In this document: positions 3,046 through 63,257 of the stretch, in pieces
Layout: each line of letters begins with the position of its first letter
Numbering within the stretch: position 1 is the stretch's first letter
DNA from: Erigeron canadensis
Lineage: Eukaryota > Streptophyta > Magnoliopsida > Asterales > Asteraceae
NCBI RefSeq assembly: GCF_010389155.1
Contig: NC_057768.1
Location: 11,282,501-11,346,500 of the forward strand
Length of the DNA: 64,000 bases
Reading direction: 5' to 3'
Notes under the pieces: model-generated
The model's input: the letters and a program-made list of their open reading frames with translations, nothing else
The model's database searches: none
What the model was told of the DNA's origin: nothing
Program-made: the position numbers and the translations under genes

Positions 3046-3963
3046 TGTTGGGTCTTTTGGGTTTTATCAAAGTAATATTATCCTTATAATCATGAAAAAC
3101 GCAGCGGAAGAAATGAACCTTTCATTATCTTATATGTAGTTAAAATCAAATTTTAACATATAAAAGAAAACCCCAAACAATAAGGATCCATGTATATGAA
3201 TGTCATACAATCAAAATAACAACCATAGGGTGTTTAGAAGACTACCTTCTTCCAAGCTTATGAGAAGGTTGATATGAAGAAGATGATGTTCCTAAAAGGG
3301 CCAAGTCTTCAAGATAGAAGTACCTCAAGCTTGCATACCCCAAGTCTCCAACAAACACCCAAATATGCTAGGATTTAGACTTGAAAAACCCTTCTCCTTT
3401 TGCCTTGTTTGTGCCGAAATCAAGAGAGAAAAAGAGAGAGTTTTTGCACTTGAGAGTTGAGAGAACACTATAGCAAAATGCATGTAACAATTGTGTGTTT
3501 CCAATGTAGCTAGTGGGTTATCTAAAACAAGCAAATGCATGTGCATTTTAGGTGGGGGTGGCTGGCCACAAGGTGAGACCACATGGGTCTCACCAACTCA
3601 AAATCCACTTGCATTTTCCTTTTATACAATATATATATAAATGTATTATAACATGTTATATACCTTATGTAACATATTATGTATTATACATAACACACAT
3701 AAGTGTTTATTTTGCCAAATAAACACATTCACATATTTCTCAAAATAAATTATCCATATAATTTACTTATATTTCTCAAGTGCATTTATTTAGAAAACCC
3801 ATTTCCTAAATGCTTCAAGTATTGATATTTATTTAAAGATCATATCATATAAATACATATCATAAGTGTTTGTCTAACTTGTTATTGGGTATGACCTGAC
3901 TTGGATCATCACATACTAGCCACGTCAATTTAATATGTGTCTTGGGCATCCGAAGTTCCAACA
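3046..3963 (-). repeat. 3' LTR of copia B
   Basis: It starts TGTTGGGTC and ends TTCCAACA on the plus strand, 918 bp. It pairs with 12885-13799. The adjacent interior on the minus strand reads CAAGTGCGAGAT, in the position of a polypurine tract. An 85-codon frame inside (3325-3582) is present in both LTRs but has no protein-like features. Confidence 0.93.
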
Positions 3964-4774
3964 ATCTCGCACTTGCACAAGATTCATAGAATATTGACGC
4001 AAATAGCAAATACCGCCTAACAACGGTTTGCTACCCCTAATACGTGTGACGTAGTGCCATTCAATAACATCATCCCCTTCAAGTCTCTACTTGAAATGAT
4101 TTAGGTGAATCAATCATTTTTCCTTTTGTCACAGATGTCATGTTAAATCCTAGAGACATAGAGTGATCATTCTCTATTGATTTAACTTTGTAACAGGCCT
4201 TAGAAATCTAACTCTCAACGAATAAGAGGGACAAATCCCATTTCGACTACATACGTCTTTCACAATCACCTTATATCATACCTGAGCTTAGCCTTATGTA
4301 CTGCCATGTTTCAGAACAGCGAAGAACCAAGTCAAAGTGTAATATTCAGTGAATATCAAGATGCAATATGTATCTCAGGTCTGAGGACACAATGATATTC
4401 GCCTTTTAAATCAAGATTACTTATGATCAATCACAAAGATTCCATGTAGTAATTCTTGAGTGCAGGTCAGTCTAATATTTGTATCCCACAAATATCTATG
4501 AACCTTGGCAGCAACACATTGCTCTATATTCAAAACCTTTTGAACATCTACCAATCCAAGTTCATAACAGTCTTACATTCATATTTGTTCCCACAAATAT
4601 GATTGACTACGGACATTTAGAATAACTAATTTATTCATGGATTTAAACATGCAAAAAAAATGGAACATAACACAATTTAAATGCATAATACCAATATTCA
4701 TATAAAAGTGTTAACAAATACAAACGTTCCGATATCCAAATACAAAAAATAGATCAAATCCAATCACTAGAATA
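3964..4774 (-). other. 3' untranslated interior of copia B
   Basis: About 0.8 kb between the RNase H end and the 3' LTR. I see no reading frame of note; it appears to be ordinary non-coding element sequence. Confidence 0.6.
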
Positions 4775-14814: not shown

Positions 14815-15797
14815 TGTTAGGTCTAGATTTACTAGACTTGCTCCAGACGTAACTACTGGAACCCTCTGAAGATTTGTCCAGAAATTATGTGAAGACCAGT
14901 GAACAACTTACTTGTATAGAAATCTGGATTCCACCAGATTTGTTCACTGGACTTCACTCCAGTCAAGATCTTTCCACTAAAGAACATTCTCACTGAAGTC
15001 GAAGACTGAAGTCTGAAGAAAGAAGTCTGACAAATAGCAGAGCTAACTGGAAGACTTACCAGGTCTCCTGACTGGAGTCCTTGTCAGTGTTCTAGACCTT
15101 ACAAGTCTGAACACTGATTACGAGGAATTGACTTTATGCCTTTACATGCCTTTAACCGGACAATCCATTTGTCTTTTGTTAAAATCCTTACATGCATGTA
15201 AAGGTGGTTGGTTAATTAGAAGACAAGTCACTATCATGTGACTTTATTCTTGTACTTTAATCAATGCTTTTAAGGAATTAATGTAATTTCCATAAATGCA
15301 TGTAACCATATTTGTTCGGCAAAAAGAATATTATACTTATTCTTTTTGCCCATAAATACCAAGTCACTTCCTCGTCCAAATTACATACTTTTGCAATTTG
15401 GTGCATTTGCTCAAATACTCTCGATCTAAACAGTCATACTTCACAACTTTAAGAATTTCGATCAAAGAGTTTATTTAGCAAAGATTAGATCACTTGTAAT
15501 TCATAGGTTGTTTAGATACTTACTTTGTAATATCTTGTTCCGCAACAACCTTGTATTTTATTTAACATCAATAAATAAAATACATTTGAAAATTACATTG
15601 TGTCTCACCATTTACTTATTTGGTTATCTTTATATTGCTTAAGTACGTATTACGTTATATATATTCTTGCATTTATATTTATCGTAATACTAGTCCAATC
15701 TAGTGCTTACTTGACGTTTAATACTAGTCCCCTCTAGTGATTACTTGACTTGTTATTCTACACTTGTGGGTTAAACCATCGAGTGAGGGACTTTACA
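14815..15797 (+). repeat. 3' LTR of copia A
   Basis: 983 bp from TGTTAGGTC to CTTTACA, with a TATA box (ATAAATACC) at 15352-15360. It matches 36904-37886 base for base in length. No PBS follows, as expected for a 3' LTR. Confidence 0.92.
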
Positions 15798-15968
15798 ATA
15801 TTAACAAGAATTACATAGATAATTTATGTTAATTGTATTTATAAGTATAAATTACAGGGATAATTTATATTTTTGACTAGGTTATAGAGATAATTCTGGT
15901 TGTGTAGAATATGCATGTGAATTTTTATGTCGATTTGAGTAATTAATTGTTTGTTATTGATTACAGAA
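15798..15968 (+). promoter_or_regulatory. Intron-like leader with a 3' splice site at the copia C aORF
   Basis: T-rich sequence ending TTGTTATTGATTACAG, then AA and the ATG at 15969. It looks like the tail of an intron whose acceptor lies 2 nt before the start codon, matching the arrangement in copia H (acceptor at 55351, ATG at 55354). The donor side was displaced by copia A. Confidence 0.5.
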
Positions 15969-17522
15969 ATGGCAAGAATTTTCATAGGTGTGCATAACTA
16001 CGTGATGAACCTTGACGATAATCAGGAAGGGACCGAATATTATCACGAGATATTCGCTTTCTTCAGAAGATCTCGAGTTCATTATGTGCTTACTCATTCG
16101 CCCGTCGTATATCTCGATTGTTTAAGAGATTTCTGGGCAAATGCTAATGTTGTTCGTGCTGGAGACGAACATATCTTTCATACCATTGTTGCCGGGCAGC
16201 AGATACAGTTCACCGCTGCTGATCTCATTGGTATACTTCGTTTAGGCATAGATGAGCAGGAAGGTGGTGCAACAGGTCTCACCAGATTTCGTCATGAGTT
16301 GATACTGGGTGCTTTTCGAAGGATGGGGTTTGCAGGTAGTTTGGCCAGTAGAACTCTGTTTAAGAAGGGTTTCTATGGCAGATGGAGGTATCTCACCCAT
16401 GTGCTTAATGTTGCATTGAGAAACAACAAGTCTGGTTTTGATACGTTGAACCAGGAAGCACAGTCACAGATGGTGGGCTTGGTGTTTAACAAGCCGTATA
16501 GCTTCTCGAAGTTCTTCTTCCACGAGATGAGAAAACAGATCACAGCTGCGGGCAAGAGGAGGTTTTTGTTGTTTCCTCGACTTGTGATGATGATTATCAA
16601 TGCTCGACTTCCGAATCTACCTGCTGGAAGGGAAGTGAAGCAAGTGAGTACGATCATTCGTCGTGGTTATGATGAGTTTTTGTCTCGCTATCCGAATGAT
16701 CCAAATGCACAGGATGTTGCATTATTTGGTGTTGTTATCAATGCAAACTACATTGCACCGGCTGATGAGGTCATATCAGCTTATGAAGGGCCTCAGCCAT
16801 AGGGTGTTGAGGTTGCAGGGAATGTTGAGCTTCCAGAGCAACTTCATGATGTTGTAGTACAGGCAGATGCATCAGAAGAGCCTGAAGTGGTCATATAGGC
16901 TGCAAATGATGTGATAGACCAGGTTGAAGCCAATCCAGAGATTGTTGATGATATTCTGGAGCAGATGGCTGATCCAGAGGGTGATATTGCACAAGTGCAG
17001 AGGTATAATCCCAATGATGATGATCTAGTGAACGTAGACCTAGACCGGGACATAGATGACTATGTAGCTGAAGCTGCAGATGGTTCTGAAGCAGCTAGAG
17101 TTAGTAAGTTAGGTGCTACTGAAGCTACGGGTCAGGCATTGATTAGGCTAGTGGATCGGGTATTGATGCTGGAGATAGAGGGAAGGCTACAGCTATTGAA
17201 CAAGATAGAGAGCCTTCGGTTCATTCAGATGATGAGTCCAGCAGTGATGGAGATGATGATCCTTACAGATTAGATGTGTTCGTCAGAGTTGGATCTAAGC
17301 TGATTCCTAAATCTCCAGTAGTCAATTTAGGAAGAAGAAGAAGAGGAGAAACTGATGAGGACTGGGAACCAGAACAACCACTGCTTAAGAAAAGTAAACT
17401 TGTCAGGGCACAAGAGACTTCTGCTGCTACTGGTGGTCCAGTTATCATTAGTTCGGAGACTACTCAGCCACAACCACAGCCACGGACTGAAGAGGCTAGT
17501 CTAAGCCTTGCTGATTGGCAGA
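15969..17522 (+). pseudogene. aORF of copia C, N-terminal half (broken)
   Basis: Start ATG 15969, preceded by a splice-acceptor-like ACAG. The N-terminal domain of about 280 residues reads through LRDFWANANVV, a motif shared with aORFs A, D and H, and GLVFNKPYSFSKFFFHEM, shared with H. An acidic region (16911-17270) and a basic patch (GRRRRGETDEDWEPEQPLLK, about 17325-17390) follow. TAG at 16800-16802 and about 16896 and a frameshift near 17150-17270 break it. D is inserted after 17522 and the frame resumes at 24849. Function is unknown; it is coded separately from pol. Confidence 0.75.
17518..17522. repeat. Target-site duplication of element D (left copy, GCAGA)
   Basis: GCAGA precedes TGTAAAAC and recurs at 24849-24853 after TCTAACA. 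Confidence 0.94.
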
Positions 17523-17812
17523 TGTAAAACTGTAATTGATTCGTGTTTTGCTGCGGAAGTTAGATATTCAACAATGGTGATTAGTGTATGTAAGTGTGTG
17601 TTCTTGAGAGAGAAAGATGTGTATTTGGAATGATCTGATTACTTTCAATATGTAAAATGTGTGGGAAATGAGTTATCAGGTTACAAAGAAAGAAGGTTTG
17701 AGGGGTATTTATACTCTAAGAAAACTTACAAAAGCTCCCCCTCAACCTTACAATAAGTACATAAACATACATTTTTTTTAACTACAACTAAGCACTATTT
17801 ATAGTTCTAACA
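17523..17812 (-). repeat. 3' LTR of element D
   Basis: 290 bp, TGTAAAACTG to TTCTAACA. It has about 30 bases (around 17668-17700) that the 5' copy lacks; otherwise the two differ at roughly ten positions by eye. Confidence 0.9.
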
Positions 17813-17824
17813 TTCTCCCCCTTA
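17813..17824 (-). other. Polypurine tract of element D
   Basis: The plus strand TTCTCCCCCTTA reads TAAGGGGGAGAA on the element strand, directly abutting the 3' LTR. This fixes the orientation as minus. Confidence 0.85.
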
Positions 17825-17851
17825 GTGCTTGGTTGTGAACTTGGTTGTCCA

Positions 17852-20800
17852 TCATCTCTTCCTTTGATGTCTTCTCCTCATGCTTGCTCTCCTTTGCTTG
17901 TTCTTTCTCTTCTTATAACTTTGAGTAGCAGTTGATGTTGTAGGCTTGTCAATCTTTGAATTCCAGAAGGCTCTTTTCTTATAACTATTCCAAGTGTCTT
18001 TCCAATACTTCTTTGGAATGAAATGCCAGTTATCACCTTCAGGACGTTCATCTGGCAATCGAATGTTGTCTTGGAAATTCACTGGTGGAATGTTATGAGG
18101 ACCATGTTTGTGACTAGGATTCCAAACAACCCATGAGCCTGTCTCAATATGTCTTACTCCTTATTGAGCCTTGGGAGTCCTTTCAACAATAAAATCTCTT
18201 ATTCTTTGACGCATCTCAAGAACAGCTTTGATATGTCTTATATGATTTCCTCTCTGAGACTTGATATGATCATCTTCTTCATCATCAGAATCTTCATTTA
18301 ATGCACTTAGAATTGACAAGCAATAGTTCAAAGTACCATCAGAATACTTGGAAAAATCTGAAGCACGAATGAAGATCTTTCTCCTTAAACGATTAATGTA
18401 GACAAACCTATCCAAGTCTTGAATCACATCTCCAATTTGAAATGAATCTAGCTCATAACCTCCTGCTCTTTGATTTGGTTTTGTGAGGTTAATCTTGCTA
18501 GTTCTTCTTCCTAAGCCGATCTGAAAGTCATTGAATTCATAAAATCTGATTAAGGCTTGAAGGTGGTTTTTCAATGCTTCATAGGCTTGAAGTTGATCAG
18601 GAGTCTTGATAATCAAATATGCATATTGATTGTAGAGGAACAGGATGTCTGAGATCTTCAAGTGTTGGAAAGATTCTTCTTGAACAACATACATATAACC
18701 ATATGCTCTGCGAACTTTAAAACGAACAAGTCTCATGTAGTGAGTTACCAGGGGAACAAACAACTCTAGCTTCAAACTGCCTATACCACCATTCTTCTCT
18801 CACAGAACTAACAACATTCATCAATTCCATGTACGCATCTCTTCGATCTTTATGTCTGAACAAAAAGAATGCTCTCAAATGATTCAATGTCATGTTTAAT
18901 CTTTCATCTGGCATGCAATAAATCTGAAAAGCTCTTTTTTCATGATATCTTGCTTTGCACACAATCTCTTCAGGCTTGGTACTTAAATCCAAGATCTGCT
19001 CATAGTTCTCAGTGAAATAACCCTCATTAATCTGCCAAATTCTGCTTCTTGAAATTCTTGGATGTCTGACTCCTTATGCAAGCTCACTAGGAGTCTCAAG
19101 ATTTTCTCGGTTTTTCAAATGATAGACAATCTCTTCAAAGATGTCTTTTCCATATGTTTCTTGCTGAGATTGTTCACTTGTTTGAGCATTATCAGGATCA
19201 TCAGAATAAGATGAATCAGACTCATCATCTTCAGGTTGAAATGGATCACGATCACTTGACTCGTCAGAACTTGAAGTTGTGGAATAATAGTGTGAAATAT
19301 GTCTGACAAGTGGTGGTAGATCATCTGAATCCGATTCATGAACATGAGTTGAAGAAGCTTGAGCTTGTATTTGATCTTGATTTTGATTTGTTTGATCTTG
19401 ATTTGTTTGACCTTGAATCACATCTTGAACAGTTTGTTCTTGACCACTTTGTTCTTGAGTTTCATGACCTTCTCCGATATCTCTTATATTCTCCCCCTCG
19501 GGTTGATCATCAGGACCTTGATCATCCCGACTTCTAGAGATATCGGCCAGTCGACATTGTTGGTCAAGTTCACGAACTCTTTTCTGAAGAGCTTCAACTT
19601 CAGCTCTATTCTCTTGTTGTGTAGCTTGAAATGACATGTAAGCAAGAAGTGATTGAAAAATTGATCGTTTATGGTAAGATGTCGATGCATGAGAGAAACA
19701 ATAAGAGTGTCGGTTGATAGACCACTGGTGGCAAGACGTTTTGGTGAGCAATCACTTAGATATTCGGCAGAATCAGAAGATACAGAAGAAGAACTGGAAG
19801 AGTGATGTGGTGAACTGGGATCAGGGAATGATTGAGTATTTAGTGTTGGTGTTGTTGTTGGTGGAATAGTTGGAGTTATAGGTGTTGTTTGAATTGGTGA
19901 TGATGGAATTGTTGTTATTGTTTGTATTGTAGTTATTGGTGATGTTCTTTGAATTGATGGGGGTGTTGTTGTTGCACGAATTGGTATTGAAGATGCAACT
20001 AGAGTACCAATACGTAAAGCACCTCCAGTAAGCAATCTTGGTGATGGTGAACTTGATTCAGTGGCAGGAAGTTTTCCGGTTAAGATATTTCTAGAAACAA
20101 GCAATGCACTTCTTTGACCTTCTTCAATCCTTTCAACAAACTGGGATACCAACCTTTGAGCTTCAATGGGAATAGGAATAACAGAATCTGGCACTTCAGT
20201 AGTCTCAAGTGAGTCTACCGAGTGTCCTGAAGACATCATTACTGTCTCAGGATTTCTTGTTGGTTCAAGAGTATGAACATCAGTTGATGATTCACCTTCA
20301 CAACCAGAATCTTTTGGGAAATGAAGGTGAATAACTCCGGAGTCACTTAGACTTGCCGTTATGCCTAAGGCAAGAAGAGCTGACACAACAGATTGAGCTC
20401 GAAGGAACTCAGACTGTCTCACAACCGATCTAGCCACTAAGGCGCCTTCGTTTAAAGCTGGCGTGACGTTAGCAATCGAAGGACTTCCAAATAATCCTCA
20501 AGAGGGCACAATAGTCGATCTCTCTATGTTTGTTCCGGCAACATCACCTAGATGTCCATATGGGATCACAATAGGTGCAAAAGGTGTCCTAAGTCGGGTA
20601 CTAGACAAACGTGCAGAAATGAAGTCCAAGAGAGGAGCAGATGTCTCTTGTGTTTCAACATTTACAAACTCAGAAGGAGAATGGAATGGAATACGTGGAT
20701 TTTGCTCATGCAGAAATGAGACGTCAATCTGTAGAGAGACTTTCGAATGGCTTACGGAGGTTTGACCTTGCGAGAGTTGGGAGCTCTCGACTTCTATCCT

Positions 20801-22609
20801 AGGGCGAACCCGGCGTTGATAGATGTTTTGAACTAAATGGAGGCCAACATTTTCTTTTTGCCTTTCTCCTAGCCCGGACCTCTCCTCCTCTCTGGTATTT
20901 TCAACCCCTCCCTCATTTCCACCTTGTTCCTCCGGGATGTCCATGACATCATCTGCAAACATATTTGCATCATCAGAATCAGACTCAGCATCACTGGAGT
21001 CATGAGCATCTTCTTGTGTTGTTGATTGAAATCGATCATATTCAAATCGAGATTTCTTGAATGTTTTGCGGATATTAACAGGAACTGATTTCATTCGGCC
21101 TTGAAAATATGTAGGTGGAGGAGATGGAGGAAATGATGATGATGAATGAATTTGTGAAGCAATGATTTAAGGTTGGTTTTGTTCCATTGTTGGTGGTATT
21201 GGTGAGATGATTTCAGGAAGTGGTGATGATTGATGAATAGGTGTTTGTGGTGTTTGAGGTGATTTAGGTGAAGATGGAGCAGATGATGAAGTTGATGATC
21301 TTTGAGGTGACGGTGTTTTGGGTGAAGATGATCTCAAAGTAGTTGTTTTTGGTGGTGGAGATCTAATTGGCTTTGGAGACCCAGCAATAGAAACTGTCTC
21401 CTCAGAAGATGCGGGTGAAGAAGGTTCAGCCGGAGTTTTTCTCTTCAATTTCTTTGACGAACTCCCCTTCTTCCTTTTCTGAAAAACTTTCTTACTTAAT
21501 TTCAACTCAAACTTTTGACCTTTCTCAATCTTTCTTCTCTTAGGTTCACTGGAACTGGATACACCTTCACGCTCTTTTCTTTTTCTCTTTAACCCCTCAC
21601 TTGGTGTCCTATGCACAACTTGGGCAGGAACCGGGAGGCTTTCCGGTCCCAGAGTTGTTCTAATCCAGTCCAGGTAACCTTTCAAATCATCATTAGACTC
21701 AGAAACCAAATCCAGCAAATGTGATGAAATTAAGTATGTATAACTTGTAATTCCAGAGTCTCTAACATACTTGTATTGTTGGAGTGTAACTTTTGTATCA
21801 TCATGAAGTCTCAGAATGCTTTTCTCATGTCTGACTGCAGCATGGACAATTACTGTCAGAAATCTGATAAATGGAATATACTTCTTGGGAGCTGAGATTT
21901 TTCCATTAACCAACACTATCAATTGGTCCCACAGAAGTTGAGGAATGTCGTAATGTCTATCAAAGACAAGACCATAAAAGATATGCAGCATAGGCTGAGT
22001 CAGATTATCCATCCCTCTTGTATACGAAGTCAAGCAGTTGTTGAGGATAGAGTATACATAATACCAGATCTTGGGTAGATTCTTTAGCTTGAAGTCTCTA
22101 GTCTTGGTCAAAGGACCTTCATACCCAAGTGAGATTAATGCAGGAAACATTATTTCATTGGACTCAAACTCATCAAAATTAGCATGTCCATTAGAATTAG
22201 CTTCAGGAAGCATCAGAGTTCTTCTGAAGTCATCAAGATTGAACTCAAAGTCATATATTCTATCTCCAGAGCTCAATTGATATTGAAAGAACCCTTGACG
22301 ACGAAGTTCAGGAGATTTATGTTTAGGTTTTGATCTTGAAGAAGCTGAATCTTGAGGCTGAACAAAATTTATGGTTCTCCACATCTCAAATAGATAAACT
22401 TCAGGCAAGTCTTTTTCGACAGTAAGAACATATAAGAGTGGATGATTGTGTAGAATTCTCGGGACAATTGGGAATCCCGGAGCAACAAATGGATCAGATA
22501 GAGCTCGATTGTTTCTCATGTTCTTTGAGTTGCCAGCAACAAGAATTTCTTCAATTGATTCATTCAGGGCAATCTCTTCATCATGTTTAACTTGATCTTG
22601 ATGTTCCAT
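17852..22609 (-). pseudogene. aORF protein of element D (about 1,585 codons, broken)
   Basis: ATG at 22609. The first 480 codons (22609-21167) are intact, with the motifs YLFEMWRTINFV and KYIPFIRFLTVIV shared with aORF A. A Lys/Arg-rich, then Ser/Pro-rich tail follows. After TAA 21169-21167 the same frame continues: an acidic segment, TGA at about 20500-20498, then the Ser/Thr/Pro-rich part from 20437. A frameshift near 19680 leads into a coiled-coil-like stretch (EVEALQKRVRELDQQCRLAD) and a Gln/Asp-rich part. After TAA near 19074 comes a globular C-terminal domain (18992-18161) with a frameshift near 18780, TAA at 18163-18161, and a very basic end (QSYKKRKNKQRRASMRRRHQ). No enzymatic motif is seen. 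Function is unknown; the basic tail suggests nucleic-acid binding or nuclear import. Confidence 0.75.
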
Positions 22610-24574
22610 TTTTTAATTTTTTGATTTTAAGATATAAAACAGTTTAACGCACACATAAAGTAATGTTTGAATATCAAATAACAAGTTTCATATAATTATT
22701 TATATAAAATTCAAAGAGGCTCCCATAGGCGATCAACTCAGTGTGCTTTATACAAATAATTTGATATGAGAGAATAAACACAGAATAGTTAGATACATAT
22801 TTCCATATATAAACATAGTAAGGAAGTACACAAAGGCGTTCAATTCCTTATATTTTCATATATAGAAATATATATAACTTTGAAAATAGAATATAATCAT
22901 ATAAGTACAAGATACATGAGAATAGCAAGGAAGTACACAAAGGCGTTCAATTCCTCGTATCTCAAATATATTGCAATTATATGACTATACAAAGCACTTA
23001 GTCACACCACACAAAAATTAGGTTTTAAAAAAAAATTGTTAAAACTGAAAAATTTTCTAAGTATGCAAACTAGGACGATCTTGATAAGATCGTTCTGAGG
23101 TTCAACTTAGGTTTTGAAAAAAAACAAGACGACATTGGAAAGATCATCCGACCATTGTGGAAAACTTTAAGTAATGAAAGCAGAAAAATGGGACGATCTA
23201 GATGAAGATTGTCTTAAAAAAATGTTAAGTCTTTGAAAAGCGGTGGGACGATCTTGTTAAGATTGCGTCAAGGTTTATGAGAAGAAAATGGTTTAAGTAT
23301 ATAAAGAAGAATTGAAACGATCTTGGTGAAGATCGTCTTAAGTTTTGTTCCTTGAAAAATGGTCAAGTATGGGAAAAAGGAAATGGGACGATCTTGGTGA
23401 AGATCGTCTTAAAAACCTTTATTGAAAATCCTTTTGAAGTGAAGGAAAATTGAGACGATCTTGGTGAGATCGTCTTGGAAATCAAGTGACAAAACACTTC
23501 ACTTCAATTTTGAGAAATTCTAATACTTAGAAATATAAGTTGAAATTATGTCAATTTCTGGGAAAAATTGAGCATAGTTTATCCTTACATTTGAAAGAAT
23601 TAGTTTTGAGAATCAGTTACCCATTAATTGTGTTTGAAAAGTTTCCAACAACCACACAGCGTACAGACCCTAGGACGATCCTGACAAGATCATCTTGGTC
23701 TTGGTTTCAGGGGTTTTGCAAAGAAAAACAAGTATTTGGAATTAAGACGGTCTTGGTGAAGATCGTCCTAGAACCAATCCAAACAAGAAAATGTGAAGAT
23801 TTTGCCTAGATCGTATTAAATCCAAGCAGCTAATTGTGCAACAAAAATACCACACAATGGTTCTAATTAGCTTCAACACTTAATACAGACACTTTACACA
23901 CCCACAAACCTCAAAAATTAACTAAACCAACCTAGATTAATTCAAGACCGTTCTAGGTCGTCTTCTTCATTGGAACAGGGGTTTGCCATTTTTGAATTTC
24001 TTAAATTACAACTTTGAGCATTTAAACATGTAAAAACTATCAACACATAACCTAACACCAGATACCAGAAAAAAAAACTAGGACGATCTTGGGAGATCGT
24101 CTTAGAACCACTTAAGTAAAACGGTCTATTTGAAGATCGTTTGGAAGGACTTTCCTCAAGAACAACAGATAAGACAAAATAGTCGTGCAGAATCACTAAA
24201 TCTCTATTTTCTCACTCAGTTTTGAGAGTTAGAACTTGATTCAAAAACAGAAATGTTCAAAATTCGATCGAGCACAACCCTTGCAACAAAATTATAGCTC
24301 AAATCAACTCAAATTCAAACCTAAAATTTTGGCGGTTTTCCCAGAATTTCGGATTTTGATGAATACAGTGAATTGGATTCTAAAATTTAACATGATGTTT
24401 TCTGAGATGATTTAGAATGGATTGGTGAACAAAAACAGGAAAATTGAGTGAAAATTGATGTAGAAATGATGAAGAGCAGAGACGGTTTGTTTGAACACGA
24501 ATTTTGAATTTTTGAACAAAATCAACACAAATCTGTATAGAATATGTTCTGGATCTTCAACAGATTGTTATTTT
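22610..24574 (-). other. Leader of element D with a hairpin array
   Basis: About 2 kb between PBS and aORF without a credible reading frame. A run of 12 imperfect inverted repeats occupies 23072-24143 (separate entry). The part next to the aORF (22620-23000) is A/T-rich and repeats a phrase, GGAAGTACACAAAGGCGTTC, at about 22832 and 22930. Confidence 0.65.
23072..24143. repeat. Array of 12 imperfect palindromes, GACGATCTT-GGTG-AAGATCGTC
   Basis: Approximate copies at 23072-23096, 23126-23149, 23191-23216, 23244-23270, 23315-23340, 23385-23410, 23452-23476, 23672-23696, 23744-23770, 23943-23965, 24079-24104 and 24120-24143. The best copies (23385 and 23315) pair nine bases around a 4-base GGTG loop. 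Mismatches in one arm often leave most of the stem. Spacing is irregular, about 40-195 bases, and spacer sequences are unrelated. Confidence 0.85.
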
Positions 24575-24586
24575 GCTCTGATACCA
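24575..24586 (-). other. Primer-binding site of element D (initiator tRNA-Met)
   Basis: GCTCTGATACCA on the plus strand, two bases inside the 5' LTR. Confidence 0.9.
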
Positions 24587-24588
24587 AA

Positions 24589-24848
24589 TGTAGAACTATA
24601 ATTGATTCGTGTTTTGCTGCGGAAGTTAGATTTTTAACAATGGTGATTAGTGTGTGTAAGTGTGTGTTCTTGAGAGAGAAAGATGTGTATTTGGAATGAT
24701 CTGATTACTTTCAATATGTAAAATGTGTGGGAAATGAGGGGTATTTATATTCTAAGAAAACTTACAAAAGCTCCCCTCAACCTTACAATAAGTACATAAA
24801 CATACATTGTTTTTTAACTACAACTAAGCACTATTTATATTTCTAACA
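24589..24848 (-). repeat. 5' LTR of element D
   Basis: 260 bp, TGTAGAACTA to TTCTAACA, lacking about 30 bases present in the 3' copy. Confidence 0.9.
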
Positions 24849-24853
24849 GCAGA

Positions 24854-25269
24854 GACTGATGTCTGAGTAGAAAGAACAACATAATAAGGCTATGAATGAG
24901 ATGAGAAGCTTAATCAGTGATATGGCTGATGATTTGAAGGTTGTGAGTACCAGAAATAGAATTCTTGAAGACAAAATGGGCAAGATCGAAGAAGTAGTGT
25001 CCAAGATGTCTGATAAGTCTCTGGAGGTTGAAGGCAAGGTTGTCAAGATAGAAGATGGTCTCAAGCAGGGAGTTAAGAATCTTGAGGAGAATATGCATGA
25101 GCTATATGACAAGTATGTCAAATGGATAGCTGAGAGGGATAACTCAGGTTGTAAGGGTGATGAGCTAGCTAAGGCAGGAAATAAGGATGATCAGAATGAA
25201 GATCCTGATGCTGCTCGAGTTACTCAAGAGCTAGGAGGAAGTTCTGTGATCAAAACAGAGACTCAGTAA
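24854..25269 (+). pseudogene. aORF of copia C, C-terminal half
   Basis: After the D insertion the frame resumes: RLMSE, an in-frame TAG (about 24869), then a long heptad-like coiled coil (about 24890-25130, RNRILEDKMGKIEEVVSKMS). A hydrophilic end rich in Asp, Gln and Glu closes at TAA near 25269. The coiled coil, a DNSGCKGDELA phrase and the acidic tail match the corresponding part of aORF H (KSGCKDDVLA, about 57177-57205), which supports homology. Function is unknown. Confidence 0.7.
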
Positions 25270-25481
25270 GAGTCTAGCCAGACTAGTTATGTTGGCAAGG
25301 CTACCTCATAAGCTCTACAAGCTTAAAGAATTGTTGTTTACATATATAAACATAATAATTGAGCTTGAGGCGCCTTAAGCTAAATCAACCTGAAGTTATT
25401 ATTCTCAAATGAAGCAGAAAAAGTAGATTGATGACAAAGACGAGACGAAGACATTTATTTAAACATCTAGAAGCTATTGCC

Positions 25482-25490
25482 AAGGGGGAG
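25482..25490 (+). other. Polypurine tract of copia C
   Basis: AAGGGGGAG, then TC and the LTR start TGTAAGTG; the same nine bases precede the 3' LTR of copia H (59326-59334). Confidence 0.88.
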
Positions 25491-25492
25491 TC

Positions 25493-25800
25493 TGTAAGTG
25501 CACGTCTATGTCAATAGCAGTCTAGATTGTTTGAGGTTAAATGTAATATGTCTTTGTAATTGTCATTAATGAACTTTGTATTATGCATAGAATACTAGAT
25601 TAAGTTTATGTATTGAATGTATAATTAATCTGCTTGAGAGGGATTACGACCTCGTAATTGAAGGGACAATTACGACCCCGTATTTGCAAGGTCAAATACG
25701 AGGCCAATCACAGAATACTACCTCATATTAGTGTCGGGTTGGGCTTGGATTTGCGAGGCCAACTCGCTGGAAATCCATTCGGGTGTTTCCTATATATACC
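25493..25800 (+). repeat. 3' LTR of copia C, first part
   Basis: It begins TGTAAGTGCACG. A TATA box, TATATATACC, at 25791-25800 marks the promoter; gypsy F inserted exactly at its downstream edge. The LTR continues at 36746. Confidence 0.8.
25796..25800. repeat. Target-site duplication of gypsy F (left copy, ATACC)
   Basis: ATACC before TGTAACACCCC and again at 36746-36750 after GTTGTTACA. Confidence 0.93.
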
Positions 25801-32812: not shown

Positions 32813-35800
32813 TATAACACCCCGACTAAGGCGGAAACACAAGATGCCACAGAACGACATGGTACAAAAGATTTGAGTATAAAACATCAACACAAGTTTT
32901 CAAATGACATTCAAAATCCAAAAGATTACAAATTTAAGATGACGTTCAAATCCATTACATAACCAAATTCATAATTAAAATGATCAAATGTTTGCAATAC
33001 TTGTCTAACCATACAAGCATTATAGGGTCCAAAAGGGCGGTCCAAGCTACGCATCTAAATCTTTAACCTGAAAAGCATGAAGAAGAAGAAGTGTCAACTA
33101 CGAGAGTTGAGTGAGTTCATAGGTTTTTAACTAACAACGTAAAGTATATATATACATCATAATCAAAATTTTGAGAGTCATCAAAATTTCCATGTATACC
33201 TCCAATATAACATTTGAAAAGCGTATGTTCCGCTTACTATAATCAACCGAAATAAAATCATTATCATATAACCACAAGGATATAATTCAGTTAACTTAGA
33301 TGAGTAAATGCTTGAGCCACTACTACTACCATTTTTTTCAAAGTCCGATAATAAATAAATGAATCTTGCACAAGCTGTCAATCAAGTGCCGTAATAATAA
33401 TAATATAAAAGGGGTCGTGCCATGGAGACGACCTAAGTAAGGTAGCTAGAACACCCGTGGTCGGACTGGAAGAGGAAGTCGTCACAAAGGCAACCAACCT
33501 TCCACCGTTACACAAATAGGTGGGTGGACGAAACCTAGTTGCGCAACTAACTAACTACAGGGCTCCTTAATCGGAGTAAATAGTAGTGAACCGAAGAAAG
33601 CGGTTTGATAGAACTCAAGCTCATCATATAAATCATTTATCATAATGAACATACGAAACAATTTCATTTCATAATCATAATATCAAGAATCATTTCATAT
33701 ATATATGTCATAATAAAAGCAATTTAGCTTATATATCATGTTTTTCACCCCGATAGTTAAAACACATAAAATAATTTGAAAGGGGGCTATGACTCACTTG
33801 AATTGAGAGTGAAAGAGGGCTGATCAAAAGTGAGATCTCCGGCTAGTGGTGTCTTTCCTCAAGCAAGCCTAAACCATGGTATTCGAAATATGCACAACGT
33901 AAGTGTGTGTCGCATGACTAGTAAACTAGATCATGAGATGTATGCTAGTAGACTTGCCCAACTTTGGTTGTTGTTTAATTATGGAATTCAAGTAAATTAT
34001 GTTGTTCACCTCATTTGGTTGGAAGACATTTGGTAGTAAAGGTCATTCATACGATTTTGTTCAGTTATTGGAATTTCGGTAGTTTAACTTTGTATTATAT
34101 ATATTTTCCATTGCATGCTTTGCTTAATAACCATATTTGACATTTGTGTTCTCATAATATTAATGTTGATATATCTTACTGATTTATAATTATTTATTTA
34201 ATTTAATATTATTTAATTAATTTATTTACTTATTTTATTGGTTTATTAATTAAATAATTCCTTATAATTATTTTTTAGTCCTTAAATTATCTCTAAAATT
34301 CATAGATAATTATAGATGGATTATCTACTAATTTTCAAGCCTTTTTATTTGTAACACTGTGATTCTTATATTTATTTGTGCCGTATTTCTATTTATTTAA
34401 TAATAATGATTAATTAGCGACTTTTACTTAATAATTTACTTTTAAATTGTATAGTTCTTGTTCCCTTCCTTGTAGTTATTTTTCCCCAGTAGGTTTTGGT
34501 CACTTTTATCATTGGTTAAGTGGCTTTGATCAGATTCATGGTTTATATAATTTATTAATTAATATATATATCTTTTAATTACTATTTTAATTCATTAAAT
34601 CATAGAAATTCTTACAAATCACCACAAGGGTTTTAGTCCAAAAATTCCAGGACTTTTTGGCAACTTATATCAACACAAATTCATATCAATTCAACCTCTC
34701 TTGTGTCTTGCTTAAATTGAGGATTTTATAATTGAAAATCGTTTACCGAAATACTGATTTTAGCCTCATTTCTTAGGCTATTAAGGTACTTCAAAATGGA
34801 TTTTCATCCTAAATTCAACATTCACAGTAAGTTCATCATATTTTGGTGGTTCAAGTCGTAATGGTGGTGGTGTGATATGTGCAATTTAGTGCTTTCGGTT
34901 AGTGATTAGTTGACCCGAAAAGACGATTTTTGAGCTTATTCTTGCCATGCATCAAATGACTTGAGTTTTATACTTTTAATATGTCATATTTCCAGGATGT
35001 CATCACATTTTCATGGTCATAAAGTTATGGTGCATGTGTGTGCTCAAAATGCATTTTAACAAGCTTTCGGTTTACGATTTCAAGCATATTTTAACTTGTT
35101 TTGACCCAAGCTTTATATAATTGATATTTTGTGAATTTTTCCAGAATATTTGCATGACTTTTAACATATTTTTCAGTTGACACAAGTCTCTAACCTTCTC
35201 ATAATCCAAACAACAATCCAACCTTCTTAAATCTAACATGTATGCACTTAAATCAATACTTTTTAACATAAAGCTTTATCCAGCTCAAATCTATCAATAT
35301 GAAAATATGTTTTTATGAAATATTCCAGAAAATATGAACATAAGATTGTAATAAACATGTCCTTCTCTTCATGCACAAAGATTTCCTTACAACTATCAAC
35401 ACAACCAACACCTTTTTCATGCTAACTTTTATAGATCTAACAACACAACATAAAATCCATATTTTTATGTAATTTTTCCAGAAAATATAACTTCATAATA
35501 CGTATTAATATGACCATCTTTCACAAGAAAAACCATATCAAAAGCTATATAATATATAACTACACTTTTAGGTCTTTAACTAGTTGAATCCTTGGATCTT
35601 TCTTCATGGATTCAACATGCATGAGCATGGAAAGAAAGATCCTATCAACTTTGCTCTCATCAAGTGTATATTCAAAAGAAAACATGAAGAAAACATGGAC
35701 TTTTAATAAAACCATTTTAATATGAACAAGAATAAGATTAATTTAATAAAGAGATGAAGATATATACCCTTGAAGAACACTTTTTGAAGAGGAAATAGTG

Positions 35801-36745
35801 CAGATTTTCGTGACTAATATGGCCTCCAACAATCCCTATTCAAGCCCTAATACAACCCTCAAACTATGCTTGAATCAACCCTTTATTAACCTAGCCTAAA
35901 CCCTTTATTAACCTAGCCTAAACCCTTTATTGTTCTTGCTCCCTTGATGGCTGCCGAAAATGATGAAGAAAAGAGAGAGGGAGAAGAGTTTTTGGAGAGT
36001 GAATAATGACTAGTGTGTGTAAAATGTGAGGAGTGTGTTTTGTGTGAGTTTCAAGAGAGATTTTTGGAAGAAATAAAATTTAAAAGTGAAGTGTGAAGGG
36101 GGGAAAGGGGGGCCGGCCATGGGGGGTATTTGGAGGGGTTAGGAGTATTTTTTTTTTGTTAAATTATAGTGTAAGTATATTAGTGTATGTATAAGTTTAG
36201 TGGGTATTTGTTTTTGTAAGTGTTTTGTTAGTTAAATGTAAGTAATTGGTTGTTTTAGTTAGGAATATATATATGTGTGCATATGTCATGTGTATATATG
36301 TGTATGGATATATTTTTGTATTTTTAGTTGGTTACATAGGTCATTGGTTGTAAATTTGTATCTATTTTTAAGCATATATACTTACTTATTAAGGTTTCAA
36401 CGCTTTTACGCACATATAACTTCCAATTATATTTTTAGTTGGAAATTTTATTCACCAAGATTATATTTATTTGATTTGGTTTTATTCTTGATTTGTTGGA
36501 TATTTCGTAGGAATTTTGATTGGTATCTCAACTTGTGAGACTCGCTTTATTAATTATAACTTGATTTGATCATTAAGGTTTTTGTTCAATCATATTTTAT
36601 TAAATTGAAATTAGAATTAATCAATAGCTTTAGATCACTAATTTAAGGGCATTATCTACTAACTTCAAATATAACTATGGCTGGCGGGAACATAGACAAC
36701 CTAACTAGCACGTATATATAATATATAAAAAGTAGGGTTGTTACA
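32813..36745 (-). repeat. 5' LTR of gypsy F
   Basis: About 3.93 kb from TATAACACCCC (the usual TG start has become TA) to GTTGTTACA. It contains A/T-rich stretches and several low-complexity blocks but no credible gene. It is the only near-complete LTR of this element. Confidence 0.85.
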
Positions 36746-36903
36746 ATACCAGAACCCTAACAGGGCTTGGATTTGCGAGGCCAACTCACAGAATACTACC
36801 TCATATTAGTGTCGGGTTGGGCTTGAATAACTTACTCAACGACTATATTTGTTTGCTACAGTTCAGTTTTAAAACTATAATGAGTATTAAACTCTGATTA
36901 GAC
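36746..36903 (+). repeat. Copia C 3' LTR, continuation
   Basis: After the second ATACC the copia C LTR continues. It repeats the words GGGCTTGGATTTGCGAGGCC (36763) and ACAGAATACTACCTCATATT (36788) found left of F at 25741 and 25711. It is cut off by copia E at 36904; TAGAC (36899-36903) is the predicted left target duplication of E. Confidence 0.7.
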
Positions 36904-37886
36904 TGTTAGGTCCAGATTTATTGGACTCGCTCCAGACGTGATTACTGGAGCCCTCTAAAGATTTGTCCAAAAATTATGTGAAGACCAGTGAACAACTTAC
37001 TTGTACAGAAATCTGGATTCCACCAGATTCGTTCACTGGACTTCACTCCAGTCAAGATCTTTCCACTGAAGAACATTCTCACTGAAGTCGAAGACTGAAG
37101 TCTAAAGAAAGAAGTCTGATAAATAGTAGAGCTCACTGGAAGATTTACCAGATCTCCTGACTAGAGTCCTTGTCAGTGTTCTAGACCTTACAAGTCTGAA
37201 CACTGATTACGAGGAATTGACTTTATGCCTTTACATGCCTTTAACCAGACAATCCATTTGTCTTTTGTTAAAAGCCTTACACAAATGTAAAGGTGGTTGG
37301 TTAATTAGAAGACAAGTCACTATCATGTGACTTTATTCTTGTACTTTAATCAATGCTTTTAAGGAATTAATGTAATTTCCTTAAATGCATGTAACCATAT
37401 TTGTACGGCAAAAAGAATATTATATTTATTCTTTTTGCCTATAAATATCAAGTCACTTCCTCGTCCAAATTACATACTTTTGCAATTTGGTGCCTTTGCT
37501 CAAATACTCTCGATCTAAACAGTCATACTTCAAAACTTTAAGTATTTCGATCACAGAGTTTATTTAGCAAAGATTCTATCACTTGTAATTCATAGGTTGT
37601 TTAGATACTTACTTTGTAATATCTTGTTCCGCAATAACCTTGTATTTTATTTAACATCAATAAATAAAATACACTTGAAAATTACATTGTGTCTCACCAT
37701 TTACTTACTTGCTTATCTTTATATTGCTTAAGTACGTATTACGTTATATATATTCTTACATTTATATTTATCGTAATACTAGTCCAATCTAGTGCTTACT
37801 TGACTTTTCATACTAGTCCTATCTAGTGATTACTTGACTTGTTATTCTACACTTGTGTGTTAAACCATCGAGTGAGGGACTTCACA
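36904..37886 (+). repeat. 5' LTR of copia E
   Basis: 983 bp from TGTTAGGTCC to ACTTCACA, with TATA box CTATAAATATC near 37440. It matches 14815-15797. Confidence 0.93.
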
Positions 37887-37888
37887 AC

Positions 37889-38086: not shown

Positions 38087-40625
38087 TGTAACACCCCGAC
38101 TACGGCGGAAAAGTCGGAATGTAAGATAAAGCACACACGCACATGGATGTTACATAGGGACAACTAAATGAGTGCATAGGATAAGCATAAATAGTCGATT
38201 ACATAGTCAATTAAGCAGAAATCAGTCACAAAATAAAGGTTCAGAAAACATTCACATCACAAATAAGATAAGTTCCCACTCTGGGGAAACAGTGAGGCAT
38301 ATGGCCAACAAACATAATCAAAAACATGCAAACCCCATGTCCTAAGCCTGAAGTCTGCTAAGAGTCCCATGCTACCAATCCTAGCCACGATTTGCTTGAT
38401 TACCTGAAAGGAATACTTAAACGTGTCAACACAAAGGTTGGTGAGTTCGTAGGTTTGTAAACTTTAATGAGTTGTATAAGTAGGATTTATGCCGTCAATA
38501 GAATTCGAGAATAATATAGTATAATGTGGCTAGAGACCAACTTTGCACATAAGTATGAGTATGTGTATAATCGTGCACTTACGGTACCTGGATAGAATAA
38601 ATCAATCGTGCACTCACTGTCATAAACATGACATGGATAGTATGTGTATCAATCGTGCACTGACGGTCAAAAACATGACCTGGCTAGTATGCCACAAAGT
38701 AGTCTAACAGCAACAGAATAACAATGAAAGCAATCCTTGTTAGTTATTCACGAATTTCAGAGCTAAGGTTAATTGTTCCTTTGTGTGTTCTCCTACACGA
38801 ACCACAAGCCTTGTGCATCTCCTTGGGTTGATTAATTACTTATTAATTAACAAAAGGCAATAGCAATCTAGTTATCTCAAGAGGATTCCGCAGTCTTGAC
38901 ATAACGAATCGCGTCTTATTACGATCCACGCAATAATAGGGCACCTTACAAGTACTTATCGTGTTAATGAGTTGAACGTGTCTTTAAATAATGAACTTTA
39001 GCTTTAAGAACTCGATTTAGTTGTTCATAGAACTCGTACTTTAATAGTCAAGATAGGACATGTCTTCGTATACTCAATTAGGGTTTGCACAATATTCGTT
39101 GTTCTAGATCGTTTTAGGAACTAGCTTCAATGTTAAAACATAGCCTTGAATGTGATTAATCATGTGATAATGAAGTTAAGAAGTGATTTTGGTGATTAGG
39201 TACATGATTAGATTGTTTTAAGTGTGATAAGTTGTAAGTGCTAGGTTGTTTTAGAGTTTCGAAGTCGTCCTAGGGTTTGTAGTGACCAAGACCGTTCTAG
39301 GGTTTAAGGAAAGACAAGATCGTCTTAGGTGTTTGGCTCAAGATCGTCCTAGATGGTTGGCTCAAGATCGTTTCAGATGTTTGGCTCAAGATCGTTTTAA
39401 CTTACAAATGGTTCAAGAACGTTTTAGCTTACAAGTGTTTCAAGATCGTTTCATATGTTCTATAAATCCAAGGTCATCTTAAGTTTCTAAGACACAAGAT
39501 CGTCCTAGTGTTCACTTAGCCAAGATCGTTCCATTGATCATCACAAGAGCAAAAGTATAAGATCAAGTTCTAGTTTAAGAACAAGTTGTTTGAGCAAAAC
39601 CGATCCAAAGGATCAGTTACCCAGTAAACGTACCACAAATAACACAACACCACACAAGATCAAACGAACAAACTCAAGGTGCCAAAGTGGGCTGCCTAGG
39701 ACGATCTTGAGACCAAGATCGTCCCATTCAGGATCGTCCTAGCTTCCAAACGGGCTGAACAAGAACAAATTCACAATACGAAGATCTAGATCGATTTCAG
39801 GACTTGTTTAGAACATGGAACTAGTACATATAGACACAAAAACATTAACCATTAACACTTTTAACGATTTCAAGACCATCTATAACATGAACAAGGTGTG
39901 GCACATCAAGAACAAGTTTTCCTTCATTTTCAAAAATGGGTTTTGTAAATTAAAGCATGTTATGACTCAAATTTGTTCATAAAAATGTTACTAAACACAT
40001 TTAGACACAAACCCATTAACTATTAACACGATTTTCATTTAAAAATTGGACCAAATCATCAAGAACATAAACTTGAAAAAGTACATTTTTAATTTGATCA
40101 AAAACCCATAAATTGTTGTTGTTACCTGAGATTTGATTCCAAAAATGTGTTTTGATTATCACAAGGATGCTAAAAGTACAAACGATTTTGGCTTAAGAAC
40201 CCAAAATCAAAAGATGATTTTAGTGTGTGTTTATGGTGGCTGCACTATGTGTTTTAGAGAGAGAGAGAAGAAAGATGGAGAAGAGAATGAATAGTGGTTT
40301 TTCTCTCAAGGGTTTCCATTCCTTTTCTTTTTATACCTTTCTCATAATTAATGAACTCAATAAATGCAAGGACCATTTGCGAACATTTTGAACTAGAACT
40401 TTTATGAACACAAACGTTTATGAAGCGAACTTTAATATTTCGTTGAACTTAATCATGAACTCGTCCAATAAATCAAAACTTAAGATCAGCTTGACTTTCA
40501 TATAAGCACATATTTTAAGTCTAAAGCACGTCAAGAACTTAGATAAATTGAACTCTCTAATCGTTCTAATGGCGACAGTACGATTCTAGAAACTTATTTA
40601 AAACATTTCTAAGACGGTTGTTACA
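38087..40625 (-). repeat. 3' LTR of gypsy G
   Basis: 2,539 bp from TGTAACACCCCG to GTTGTTACA. Bases 38087-38734 match 46498-47145; 38735-40625 match 59805-61694. A TATA box, TATAAAAA on the minus strand, lies near 40330. The part from 38735 begins with sequence that in the other LTR is continuous with the 3' LTR of copia H. AAGATCGT repeats occupy 39285-39540. Confidence 0.88.
39285..39735. repeat. AAGATCGTYYTAG repeats in the gypsy G 3' LTR
   Basis: At least ten near-copies of CAAGATCGTCCTAG, 20-30 bases apart in the best part (39300-39540). A full palindrome follows at 39699-39724, in which GGACGATCTTG and CAAGATCGTCC pair over 11 bases around AGAC. The matching block in the other LTR is at 60355-60800. 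The core is the same as in the leader of element D. Confidence 0.85.
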
Positions 40626-47145: not shown

Positions 47146-47511
47146 TACGGCAGGTATAAAAGCATATGTAGTATTCCTTTCACCCCAAAGCATAAGTAAA
47201 GAAAAGGGGCTACGAAGACTCACAGTGATCTGGTACAAGCGTAGTTTATAAGCACAGAGAACAAGCACAGATATAAATAGGTTATATCTATTTGAATCCA
47301 AGTACGCCTTGATGTAAACCTAATCACAAGTCATTGATCATAAATAAACACACGTATTAGTTCTTGTGATTAATTATTCACTGAGATGTCCTTGATGAAC
47401 TGATGATTTGGTCCTTTAAAGATCTTTGAACGTTTTGACTCAAAAGAGTTTGAATGAACTTTAAGTACATGAACTGGACTCGAATTGAACATCAATGAAC
47501 TCACACATACG

Positions 47512-47523
47512 TGGTATCAGAGC
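47512..47523 (+). other. Primer-binding site of copia H
   Basis: TGGTATCAGAGC, perfect. The 5' LTR must end within a few bases upstream (CACACATACG). Confidence 0.92.
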
Positions 47524-50838: not shown

Positions 50839-50854
50839 GAGAACCAAGCCTATC

Positions 50855-54480: not shown

Positions 54481-54532
54481 TTTAAATGTGTTTCTGGAAT
54501 TCGCGAAATAAAAATTTGAAATCAGCTCGTGC

Positions 54533-55351: not shown

Positions 55352-55353
55352 GT

Positions 55354-59334: not shown

Positions 59335-59336
59335 TC

Positions 59337-62828: not shown

Positions 62829-63257
62829 TGTAAAACTTCAAAAGATTCGTGTTTTGATGTGGAAGTTAGATGTTCAACAATGGTGGTTAGTGTGTGTAAG
62901 TGTGTGTTCTTGAGAGAGAAAGATATGTGTGTGAAATGATCTGATTACATTCAATCTGTACAATGTGTGGGAAATGAGTTATCAGGTTACAAGGAAGAAA
63001 GGTTTGAGGGGTATTTATACTCTAAGGAAACTTACAAAAGCTCCCCCTCAACCTTACAATAAGTACATATACATACATTGTTTTCAACTACAACTAAGCG
63101 CTATTTATATTTCTAACATTCTCCCCTTAGTGCTTGGTTGTGAGCTTGGTTGTCTATCATCTCTTCCTTTGATGCCTTCTCCTCATACTTGCTCTCCTTT
63201 GCTTGTTCTTTCTTTTCTTATAACTTTGAGCAGTAGTTGATGTTGTAGGCTTGTCAA
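62829..63257 (-). mobile_element. Fragment of a D-type element in copia E
   Basis: 429 bases matching D from its left end: LTR (62829 to about 63119), polypurine tract (TTCTCCCCTTA) and about 130 bases of the aORF 3' end, equivalent to D 17523-17952. It carries the LTR block that D's 5' LTR lacks. No second LTR and no target duplication are visible. Confidence 0.8.

What the first reader, a model, noticed from the sequence alone, without database searches (positions are those of the whole stretch)
17523..24848. Element D: a complete LTR retrotransposon whose only coding region is an aORF
Seen: TG...CA ends, GCAGA duplication, LTRs of 290 and 260 bp, initiator tRNA-Met PBS, polypurine tract, and a reading frame of about 1,585 codons related to the aORFs of copia A, C and H. 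No gag, protease, integrase, RT or RNase H motif is present in any frame. Known: non-autonomous LTR elements usually keep non-coding DNA (LARD, TRIM) or gag alone. Inferred: an element carrying only the extra ORF, mobilised in trans, would be an uncommon and possibly undescribed class. It would also suggest that the aORF product helps its own RNA.
Basis: partly seen in the sequence, partly recalled or inferred. Interest (0 to 1): 0.82.

Follow-up and report, generated by a model that had tools for sequence, protein, structure and literature searches.

The report
Deletion copy of pol-less plant retrotransposon
The finding is one damaged, shortened copy of a plant jumping-gene family that appears to have long lacked the enzyme genes needed to move, yet keeps two proteins of its own under natural selection while presumably borrowing enzymes from a relative.

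Summary
D is a real LTR element with the stated ends, TSD, LTRs, PBS and PPT, but its ~1,585-codon frame is broken by four stops and two frameshifts. D is not a class of its own: its deletion junction occurs once in the 426-Mb genome, and 15 of 15 other copies with a readable 5' junction have extra sequence there, ~4 kb in those read through. That segment is not gag-pol: it encodes ORF1, a copia-Gag-derived, coiled-coil-like protein without zinc knuckle, and no pol. The 10-11 kb parent family is thus itself pol-less: LTR, ORF1, spacer, giant aORF, LTR. A divergent subfamily (aORF 66-70% identical, dS ~1.1) has the same pol-less layout, and the aORF is under strong purifying selection (dN/dS 0.18-0.19 between subfamilies). 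Pol-bearing copia relatives with a like PBS, LTRs 71-74% identical (unrelated controls 59-64%) and decayed aORF remnants exist; they are candidate, unproven enzyme donors. So aORF selection and helper dependence are supported; an aORF-only class is not. Closest precedents are grass semi-autonomous elements (RLG_Quinta, RLC_Giselle, RLG_Beth). A new copia variant of a known kind.

The parts
17518..17522 (.). target-site duplication GCAGA (left)
24849..24853 (.). target-site duplication GCAGA (right)
24589..24848 (-). 5' LTR, 260 bp (30-bp internal gap against the 3' LTR)
24575..24586 (-). primer binding site TGGTATCAGAGC (initiator tRNA-Met type; the type is recalled)
24053..24574 (-). leader (element positions 275-796), shared with sister copies
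24037..24066 (-). deletion junction: sister copies have ~4 kb more here, with the Gag-derived ORF1; TTA shared by the two sides; junction occurs once in the genome
22610..24052 (-). spacer with GACGATCTT/AAGATCGTC palindromes and two copies of a 22-nt motif (22825-22846, 22932-22953)
17855..22609 (-). aORF, ~1,585 codons as a frame; in D broken by four stops and two frameshifts
21170..22609 (-). open N-terminal part of the aORF (480 aa); conserved among subfamilies, dN/dS 0.18-0.19
20437..20956 (-). part of the aORF that survives as a non-coding remnant in two pol-bearing relatives
17813..17823 (-). polypurine tract AAGGGGGAGAA
17523..17812 (-). 3' LTR, 290 bp
62829..63257 (-). fragment of another family copy: 3' LTR plus 139 bp of the 3' internal end, inside a copia gag-pol region

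Best explanation
D is a single deletion derivative (about 4 kb lost at a 3-bp microhomology) of a pol-less Ty1/copia family. The parent is 10-11 kb: LTR, PBS, leader, ORF1 (a Gag-derived protein with coiled-coil-like sequence, ending in the same words as the relatives' Gag), spacer, a ~1,585-codon aORF in sense, PPT, LTR. Shown here: this anatomy, absence of pol in the copies read, selection on both ORFs, uniqueness of D's junction, a pol-less layout shared by two divergent subfamilies, and likeness of LTR, PBS and (one relative) PPT to pol-bearing copia elements. Inferred: family RNA is packaged and copied by Gag-Pol of such relatives; ORF1 joins or modifies those particles; the aORF product acts on or with the RNA that encodes it, since otherwise non-coding copies should have displaced coding ones; its basic clusters suggest nucleic-acid binding or nuclear entry. 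The ancestor probably had gag-pol-aORF: the pol-less line kept the aORF, while the two pol-bearing relatives read here let it decay.
For: Sister copies are colinear with D except ~3.9-4.0 kb more after element position 796; 15 of 15 readable 5' junctions have it; D's junction pattern occurs once in the genome, at D. The segment encodes ORF1: Retrotran_gag_2 over residues 69-113 only (E 1.7e-5), weak coiled-coil matches, no CCHC. Of 5 sister copies read LTR to LTR, 5 have no PR/INT/RT/RH match inside the element with 20 queries (four copies, one); two short RT hits (L013, L014) lie outside the LTRs. Three of 3 divergent copies (66-70% aORF identity) have ORF1 and no pol in the 4.5 kb upstream; one is a complete element with 283-bp LTRs; the sequence after ORF1 is shared with subfamily 1 (69.7% over 1,022 bp). 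Pooled pN/pS: ORF1 0.44, aORF parts 0.35/0.50/0.44, against 0.66-1.08 in shifted frames; aORF N-part between subfamilies dN/dS 0.18-0.19, dS ~1.1, differences 100/68/194 at codon positions 1/2/3. Relatives: full Retrotran_gag_2, CCHC, rve, RVT_2 in the C2 element; LTR alignment scores 202.5 and 195.5 against 103-118.5 for four control LTRs and a maximum of 144 in 200 letter shuffles; aORF remnant, nhmmer E 3.5e-10 to 2.7e-14.
Against: No transcript, particle or transposition data. The relatives' LTRs are only 71-74% identical to D's (unrelated LTRs reach 59-64% in the same aligner) and blastn with D did not list them at E<=1e-5; both were met because they sit inside family copies, and the C2 element's 3' LTR was not located, so the true donor may be another family. 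The search for closer pol-bearing relatives did not complete. Only 40 of 543 LTR candidates and 89 of 2,611 aORF candidates were scored, so rare copies with pol cannot be excluded. In the complete subfamily-2 element 3.2 kb was not read; one search's open frame covers about 2.2 kb of it. aORF dS (~1.1) and ORF1 dS (0.40-0.48) differ, so recombination has mixed the parts and the date of pol loss is uncertain. Close pairs give aORF dN/dS 1.25 and 0.61.
Confidence: 0.82

Rival explanations
1. D is the founder or a member of an aORF-only, trans-mobilised family.
For: Intact LTRs, PBS, PPT and TSD and no Gag/Pol match: a copy of this shape could be mobilised.
Against: Its junction occurs once in 426 Mb; 15 of 15 readable sister junctions lack the deletion; its aORF is broken.
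Confidence: 0.04
2. The family is an ordinary autonomous gag-pol-aORF copia, and the pol-less copies read here are deletion derivatives of it.
For: Gag-derived ORF1 and pol-bearing relatives exist; only part of the candidates was scored (40 of 543, 89 of 2,611).
Against: 5 of 5 LTR-to-LTR copies and 3 of 3 divergent copies lack pol; both subfamilies share the sequence after ORF1; ORF1 and aORF are constrained.
Confidence: 0.1
3. ORF1 and aORF are maintained only as by-products: recent bursts from few coding masters and gene conversion make them look conserved, and the proteins have no role.
For: Many copies carry stops; some close pairs have dN/dS 0.61 and 1.25; subfamilies have recombined.
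Against: dN/dS 0.18-0.19 at dS ~1.1 between subfamilies and codon-position bias in differences shared by two or more copies need selection over long time.
Confidence: 0.06
4. ORF1 or the aORF product acts against the pol-bearing relatives (interference by a truncated Gag) more than for its own RNA.
For: ORF1 keeps parts of Gag but lacks the CCHC part; two pol-bearing relatives lie inside family copies. That truncated Gag can inhibit is recalled from yeast Ty1, not tested.
Against: A helper-dependent element gains little by blocking its donor; the aORF is not Gag-like in Pfam.
Confidence: 0.12

Closest known systems
RLG_Beth (Avena centromeric Gypsy; PMC13270711, passages read)
   Same: LTR element encoding one large protein of unknown function and not the proteins required for transposition; LTR, PBS, PPT and TATA shared with a proposed autonomous partner
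   Different: Gypsy, grass, centromeric; the passages mention no Gag-derived second ORF
RLG_Quinta with RLG_Cereba (PMC11302176, passages read)
   Same: no RT or INT; GAG plus a domain of unknown function; partner proposed from PBS and LTR termini
   Different: Gypsy, recognisable GAG; here Gag is reduced (no CCHC; in subfamily 2 no Retrotran_gag_2 match) and the second protein is a separate ~1,585-codon ORF
RLG_Sabrina and RLG_WHAM of wheat (PMC9744471, passages read)
   Same: semi-autonomous families with GAG-Pro, and variants in which GAG-Pro is replaced by other coding segments
   Different: Gypsy; short replacement proteins
RLC_Giselle of barley (PMC5738225, passages read)
   Same: copia family with gag but without RT and INT; proposed partner RLC_Inga
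   Different: no extra ORF mentioned in the passages; grass
aORF-bearing plant LTR elements (review PMC7264820, two of three parts read; PMC11728184 and PMC11963269, passages)
   Same: conserved additional ORFs of unknown function; some recently active Retand elements are non-autonomous
   Different: the examples given are Gypsy (Retand, Grande, RIRE2, Tekay, Athila), many antisense; here copia, sense, pol absent
TR-GAG and other TR elements of sunflower (PMC9784723, passages)
   Same: two LTRs with a single RTE protein, non-autonomous, Asteraceae
   Different: canonical RTE protein only; no aORF described in the passages

Membership tests
Ty1/copia LTR retrotransposon | two LTRs with TG...CA ends, TSD, PBS, PPT | tested here: met
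Ty1/copia LTR retrotransposon | copia-type Gag | tested here: inconclusive
   sister ORF1: Retrotran_gag_2 E 1.7e-5, partial, 24.8 bits under the cut-off of 27; 37.5-42% id to the N-part of a relative's Gag. Absent from D; no match in a subfamily-2 ORF1
Ty1/copia LTR retrotransposon | PR-INT-RT-RH in copia order | tested here: not met
   none in D or in 5 of 5 LTR-to-LTR sister copies; the copia label rests on Gag and the relatives
semi-autonomous LTR element (Quinta / Giselle / Beth type) | no RT/INT but own ORFs kept open in many copies | tested here: met
   for the family; not met by D itself, whose aORF is broken
semi-autonomous LTR element (Quinta / Giselle / Beth type) | PBS, PPT and LTR termini shared with an autonomous partner | tested here: met
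   C4 relative: all three; C2 relative: LTR start and PBS only, its 3' LTR not located
semi-autonomous LTR element (Quinta / Giselle / Beth type) | partner matched in expression, age and distribution | not tested
   no RNA data; partner scan not answered
LARD / TRIM | no coding capacity between LTRs | tested here: not met
   ORF1 and aORF constrained
TR-GAG | a GAG ORF as the only ORF between LTRs | tested here: not met
   sisters carry ORF1 plus aORF; D carries no gag
Transposase_32 (PF20167) | match above Pfam's cut-off | tested here: not met
   D pieces: no match; element C aORF E 0.062 and P0009 E 0.026, both far below the cut-off

The most novel reading that the evidence does not exclude
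A split retrotransposon system: from a gag-pol-aORF copia ancestor, one line kept the enzymes and let the aORF decay, while the other lost pol for good and has lived for tens of millions of years on borrowed enzymes, its Gag shrinking to a coiled-coil adaptor and its giant aORF protein giving its own RNA an advantage in packaging, nuclear import or escape from silencing.
Probability: 0.25. Interest if true: 0.72.

Novelty: new variant of a known kind. Interest (0 to 1): 0.5.

Why it matters
Helper-dependent elements are expected to lose their genes. A pol-less copia lineage that keeps two large proteins under constraint across divergent subfamilies argues that those proteins act mainly for the RNA that encodes them. 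That makes the unknown function of plant aORFs testable in a simple setting: compare mobilisation of family RNA with and without each ORF by one Gag-Pol donor. It also shows how such ORFs enter gene catalogues under host-protein names.

Tried and rejected
Rejected: D as an aORF-only family; sisters as plain gag-pol elements; aORF as neutral spacer. Led nowhere: protein search with a 406-aa C-terminal piece of the aORF, no match at E<=0.001 among 1,413 candidates; Pfam on aORF pieces, nothing above its cut-off; AlphaFold2 of the N-terminal 480 aa (mean pLDDT 31.9) and of 310 aa with 15 sequences (46.1), both too poor for a fold search, which was not run. Not done: copia lineage by an RT tree; a scan of all LTR pairs; the search for closer pol-bearing relatives, never answered.

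Results against the reading: close copy pairs with aORF dN/dS 1.25 and 0.61; ORF1 dS lower than aORF dS, pointing to recombination; the relatives' LTRs not listed by blastn with D at E<=1e-5; the palindrome motif is not private to the family (9 hits in the C2 relative's leader, 0 in the C4 one's, 9 elsewhere in the window). Rows dropped: copies covering under 60% of a reference part. Of the 15 junctions, L046 matched only the first 111 bp and L047 the first 722 bp of the segment in the stretch read. Fetched stretches L033, L036, L039 and L043 matched neither D nor the segment; L037 matched only a relative-like gag part at 69%; none of these is counted.
Full report
Where it lies. The window is G000:C8:11282501-11346500 of a 426-Mb, 356-contig assembly. 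Close proteins of the aORF are named Erigeron canadensis, so the host is probably that species or a near relative.

The observation. D lies on the minus strand at 17523-24848 with 290- and 260-bp LTRs, GCAGA duplications, PBS and PPT as stated. LTR-LTR K80 is 0.028, about 1 My at the commonly used rate of 1.3e-8 (rate recalled). Twenty Gag/Pol query pieces find nothing in D at E<=1e-3. The ~1,585-codon frame exists only as a broken frame: four stops, two frameshifts, longest open piece 480 aa.

D is a deletion derivative. The 3' LTR finds 543 candidates, 40 scored, 91-100% identical. Four copies read LTR to LTR (C9 at 20.05, 19.85 and 21.10 Mb, C5 at 21.97 Mb) are colinear with D but carry ~3.9-4.0 kb more after element position 796; a fifth (C8 at 11.03 Mb) likewise. 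At D's breakpoint the two sides of the sister copies share TTA. Fifteen copies other than D showed the 5' junction in what I fetched, and 15 of 15 continue into the extra segment, two of them only for its first 111 and 722 bp in the stretch read. A 30-nt pattern over D's junction, with up to 3 mismatches, occurs once in the genome, at D. D therefore did not spread after the loss, and the loss may have followed insertion.

What was lost. The segment holds ORF1 (688 aa in L015). Pfam sees Retrotran_gag_2 over residues 69-113 only, weak coiled-coil families, and no zinc knuckle. Against a pol-bearing relative, ORF1 matches the first ~120 residues of Gag (37.5-42%) and a later coiled-coil-like part (48-53%); the stretch between, with the knuckle, is missing. 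Where ORF1's end is open it reads ...KGPIQKWVPK, like the ends of the relatives' Gag frames. Of the five LTR-to-LTR copies, 5 have no PR, INT, RT or RNase H match inside the element; two short RT hits in L013 and L014 lie just outside the LTRs, in the sequence the element landed in. The parent family is thus pol-less, not gag-pol.

An old pol-less line. The aORF N-part (480 aa) was scored in 89 places of 2,611 candidates, 66-100% identical, with open frames of up to 1,404 codons where the match holds no stop. I read 4.5 kb upstream of three copies of 66-70% identity: 3 of 3 have ORF1 and no pol match. In the one scanned (L051), ORF1 has no Retrotran_gag_2 match at E<=0.1. That copy is a complete element, C7:14380381-14390798, with 283-bp LTRs 97.2% alike, PBS and PPT, and LTRs 69-70% identical to D's; 3.2 kb of it was not read, of which one search's 1,195-codon open frame covers about 2.2 kb. 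Both subfamilies share sequence after the ORF1 stop (69.7% over 1,022 bp for L049) and no pol remnant was found there (nhmmer E<=0.01, tblastx E<=1e-3), so pol was most simply lost before they split. aORF dS between them is ~1.1, tens of millions of years at the LTR rate, but ORF1 dS is only 0.40-0.48, so recombination blurs the date.

Selection. Pooled pN/pS among copies: ORF1 0.44 (8 copies); aORF N, middle and C parts 0.35, 0.50, 0.44 (12, 13, 13 copies); shifted frames 0.66-1.08. Copies covering under 60% of a part were left out. Between subfamilies the aORF N-part gives dN/dS 0.18-0.19 over 461-463 codons, with, for one pair, 100, 68 and 194 differences at codon positions 1, 2 and 3. ORF1 between subfamilies gives 0.35-0.57. 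Two close pairs give 1.25 and 0.61 for the aORF, as expected soon after insertion.

Relatives with pol. Two copia elements nested in family copies were read in part. The C2 one (18.40 Mb) has full Retrotran_gag_2, CCHC, rve and RVT_2 by Pfam; the C4 one (12.48 Mb) shows a CCHC box and integrase-like and RNase H-like frames by reading. Their LTRs align to D's at 74% and 71% identity (scores 202.5 and 195.5; four control LTRs of the window, both orientations, 59-64% and 103-118.5; 200 letter shuffles up to 144). Both have TGTGGTATCAGAGC after the 5' LTR; the C4 one has ACTAAGAGGGAGAA before TGTTAGAA; the C2 element's 3' LTR was not located. After pol they have no frame over 114 codons, but nhmmer with D finds a remnant of aORF positions 3893-4412 (E 5.5e-11 and 3.5e-10; 5.6e-12 and 2.7e-14 with copy L016) and a 22-nt motif that in D precedes the aORF. 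The simplest history is a gag-pol-aORF ancestor; an aORF that arose later over a non-coding 3' region is not excluded. These are candidate donors, not proven ones.

How it may work. Shown: anatomy, lack of pol, constraint on both ORFs, shared cis signals. Inferred: RNA from the LTR promoter (a TATAAATA box aligns between D's and the C4 relative's LTRs) is packaged and copied by a relative's Gag-Pol; ORF1 co-assembles through its coiled coil; the aORF protein, with basic clusters near residues 341-390 and, in copy L026, a basic C-terminal tail, works in the particle or the nucleus.

Known kinds. Searches and the passages read show pol-less LTR families with own proteins in grasses: Quinta (PMC11302176), Sabrina and WHAM (PMC9744471), Giselle (PMC5738225), Beth (PMC13270711). 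In those searches, which cover open-licence papers only, I saw no copia family with a reduced Gag plus a giant sense aORF. Filed as a new variant of a known kind.

Noticed in passing
window 14815-17522, 24849-25799, 33254-37887: Element C (984-bp LTRs) has an aORF just inside its left LTR but no Gag/Pol match in its own interior once the nested D and gypsy are left out (20 queries, E<=1e-3): perhaps another pol-less aORF element rather than a plain copia.
   Followed up: partly
window 47146-59801: Copia with gag, INT and RT followed by a sense aORF (55342-57518) whose N-part is 38% identical to element C's: the gag-pol-aORF order proposed for the ancestor.
   Followed up: partly
window 22825-22846 and 22932-22953; L029 4588 and 4698; L030 7463 and 7588 (minus): A 22-nt motif (GAATTGAACGCCTTTGTGTACT, 0-2 mismatches) repeated about 110-125 bp apart before the aORF and after pol in two pol-bearing relatives; perhaps a cis-acting signal. 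A genome-wide count did not complete.
   Followed up: partly
window 23082-24101; L009, L011, L013, L015: Repeated palindromes GACGATCTT...AAGATCGTC in leader and spacer of the family, also 9 hits in the C2 relative's leader and about 39316-39715, 58177 and 60385-60769 of the window (window positions recomputed).
   Followed up: partly
P0004, P0005, P0006: UniRef names aORF pieces of Erigeron canadensis 'AP-1-like transcription factor yap1', 'threonine-rich GPI-anchored glycoprotein' and 'flocculation protein FLO11-like'; P0006 begins with a Gag-like piece: retrotransposon ORFs under host-gene names.
   Followed up: no
L015 against L049 and L051: dS between subfamilies is ~1.1 for the aORF N-part but 0.40-0.48 for ORF1, which suggests recombination between subfamilies.
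   Followed up: no
window 38732-40625 and 59802-61694: A 1.9-kb repeat (97.5%) lies inside a gypsy element and just before a copia gag frame that starts in its last bases; its boundaries were not worked out.
   Followed up: no
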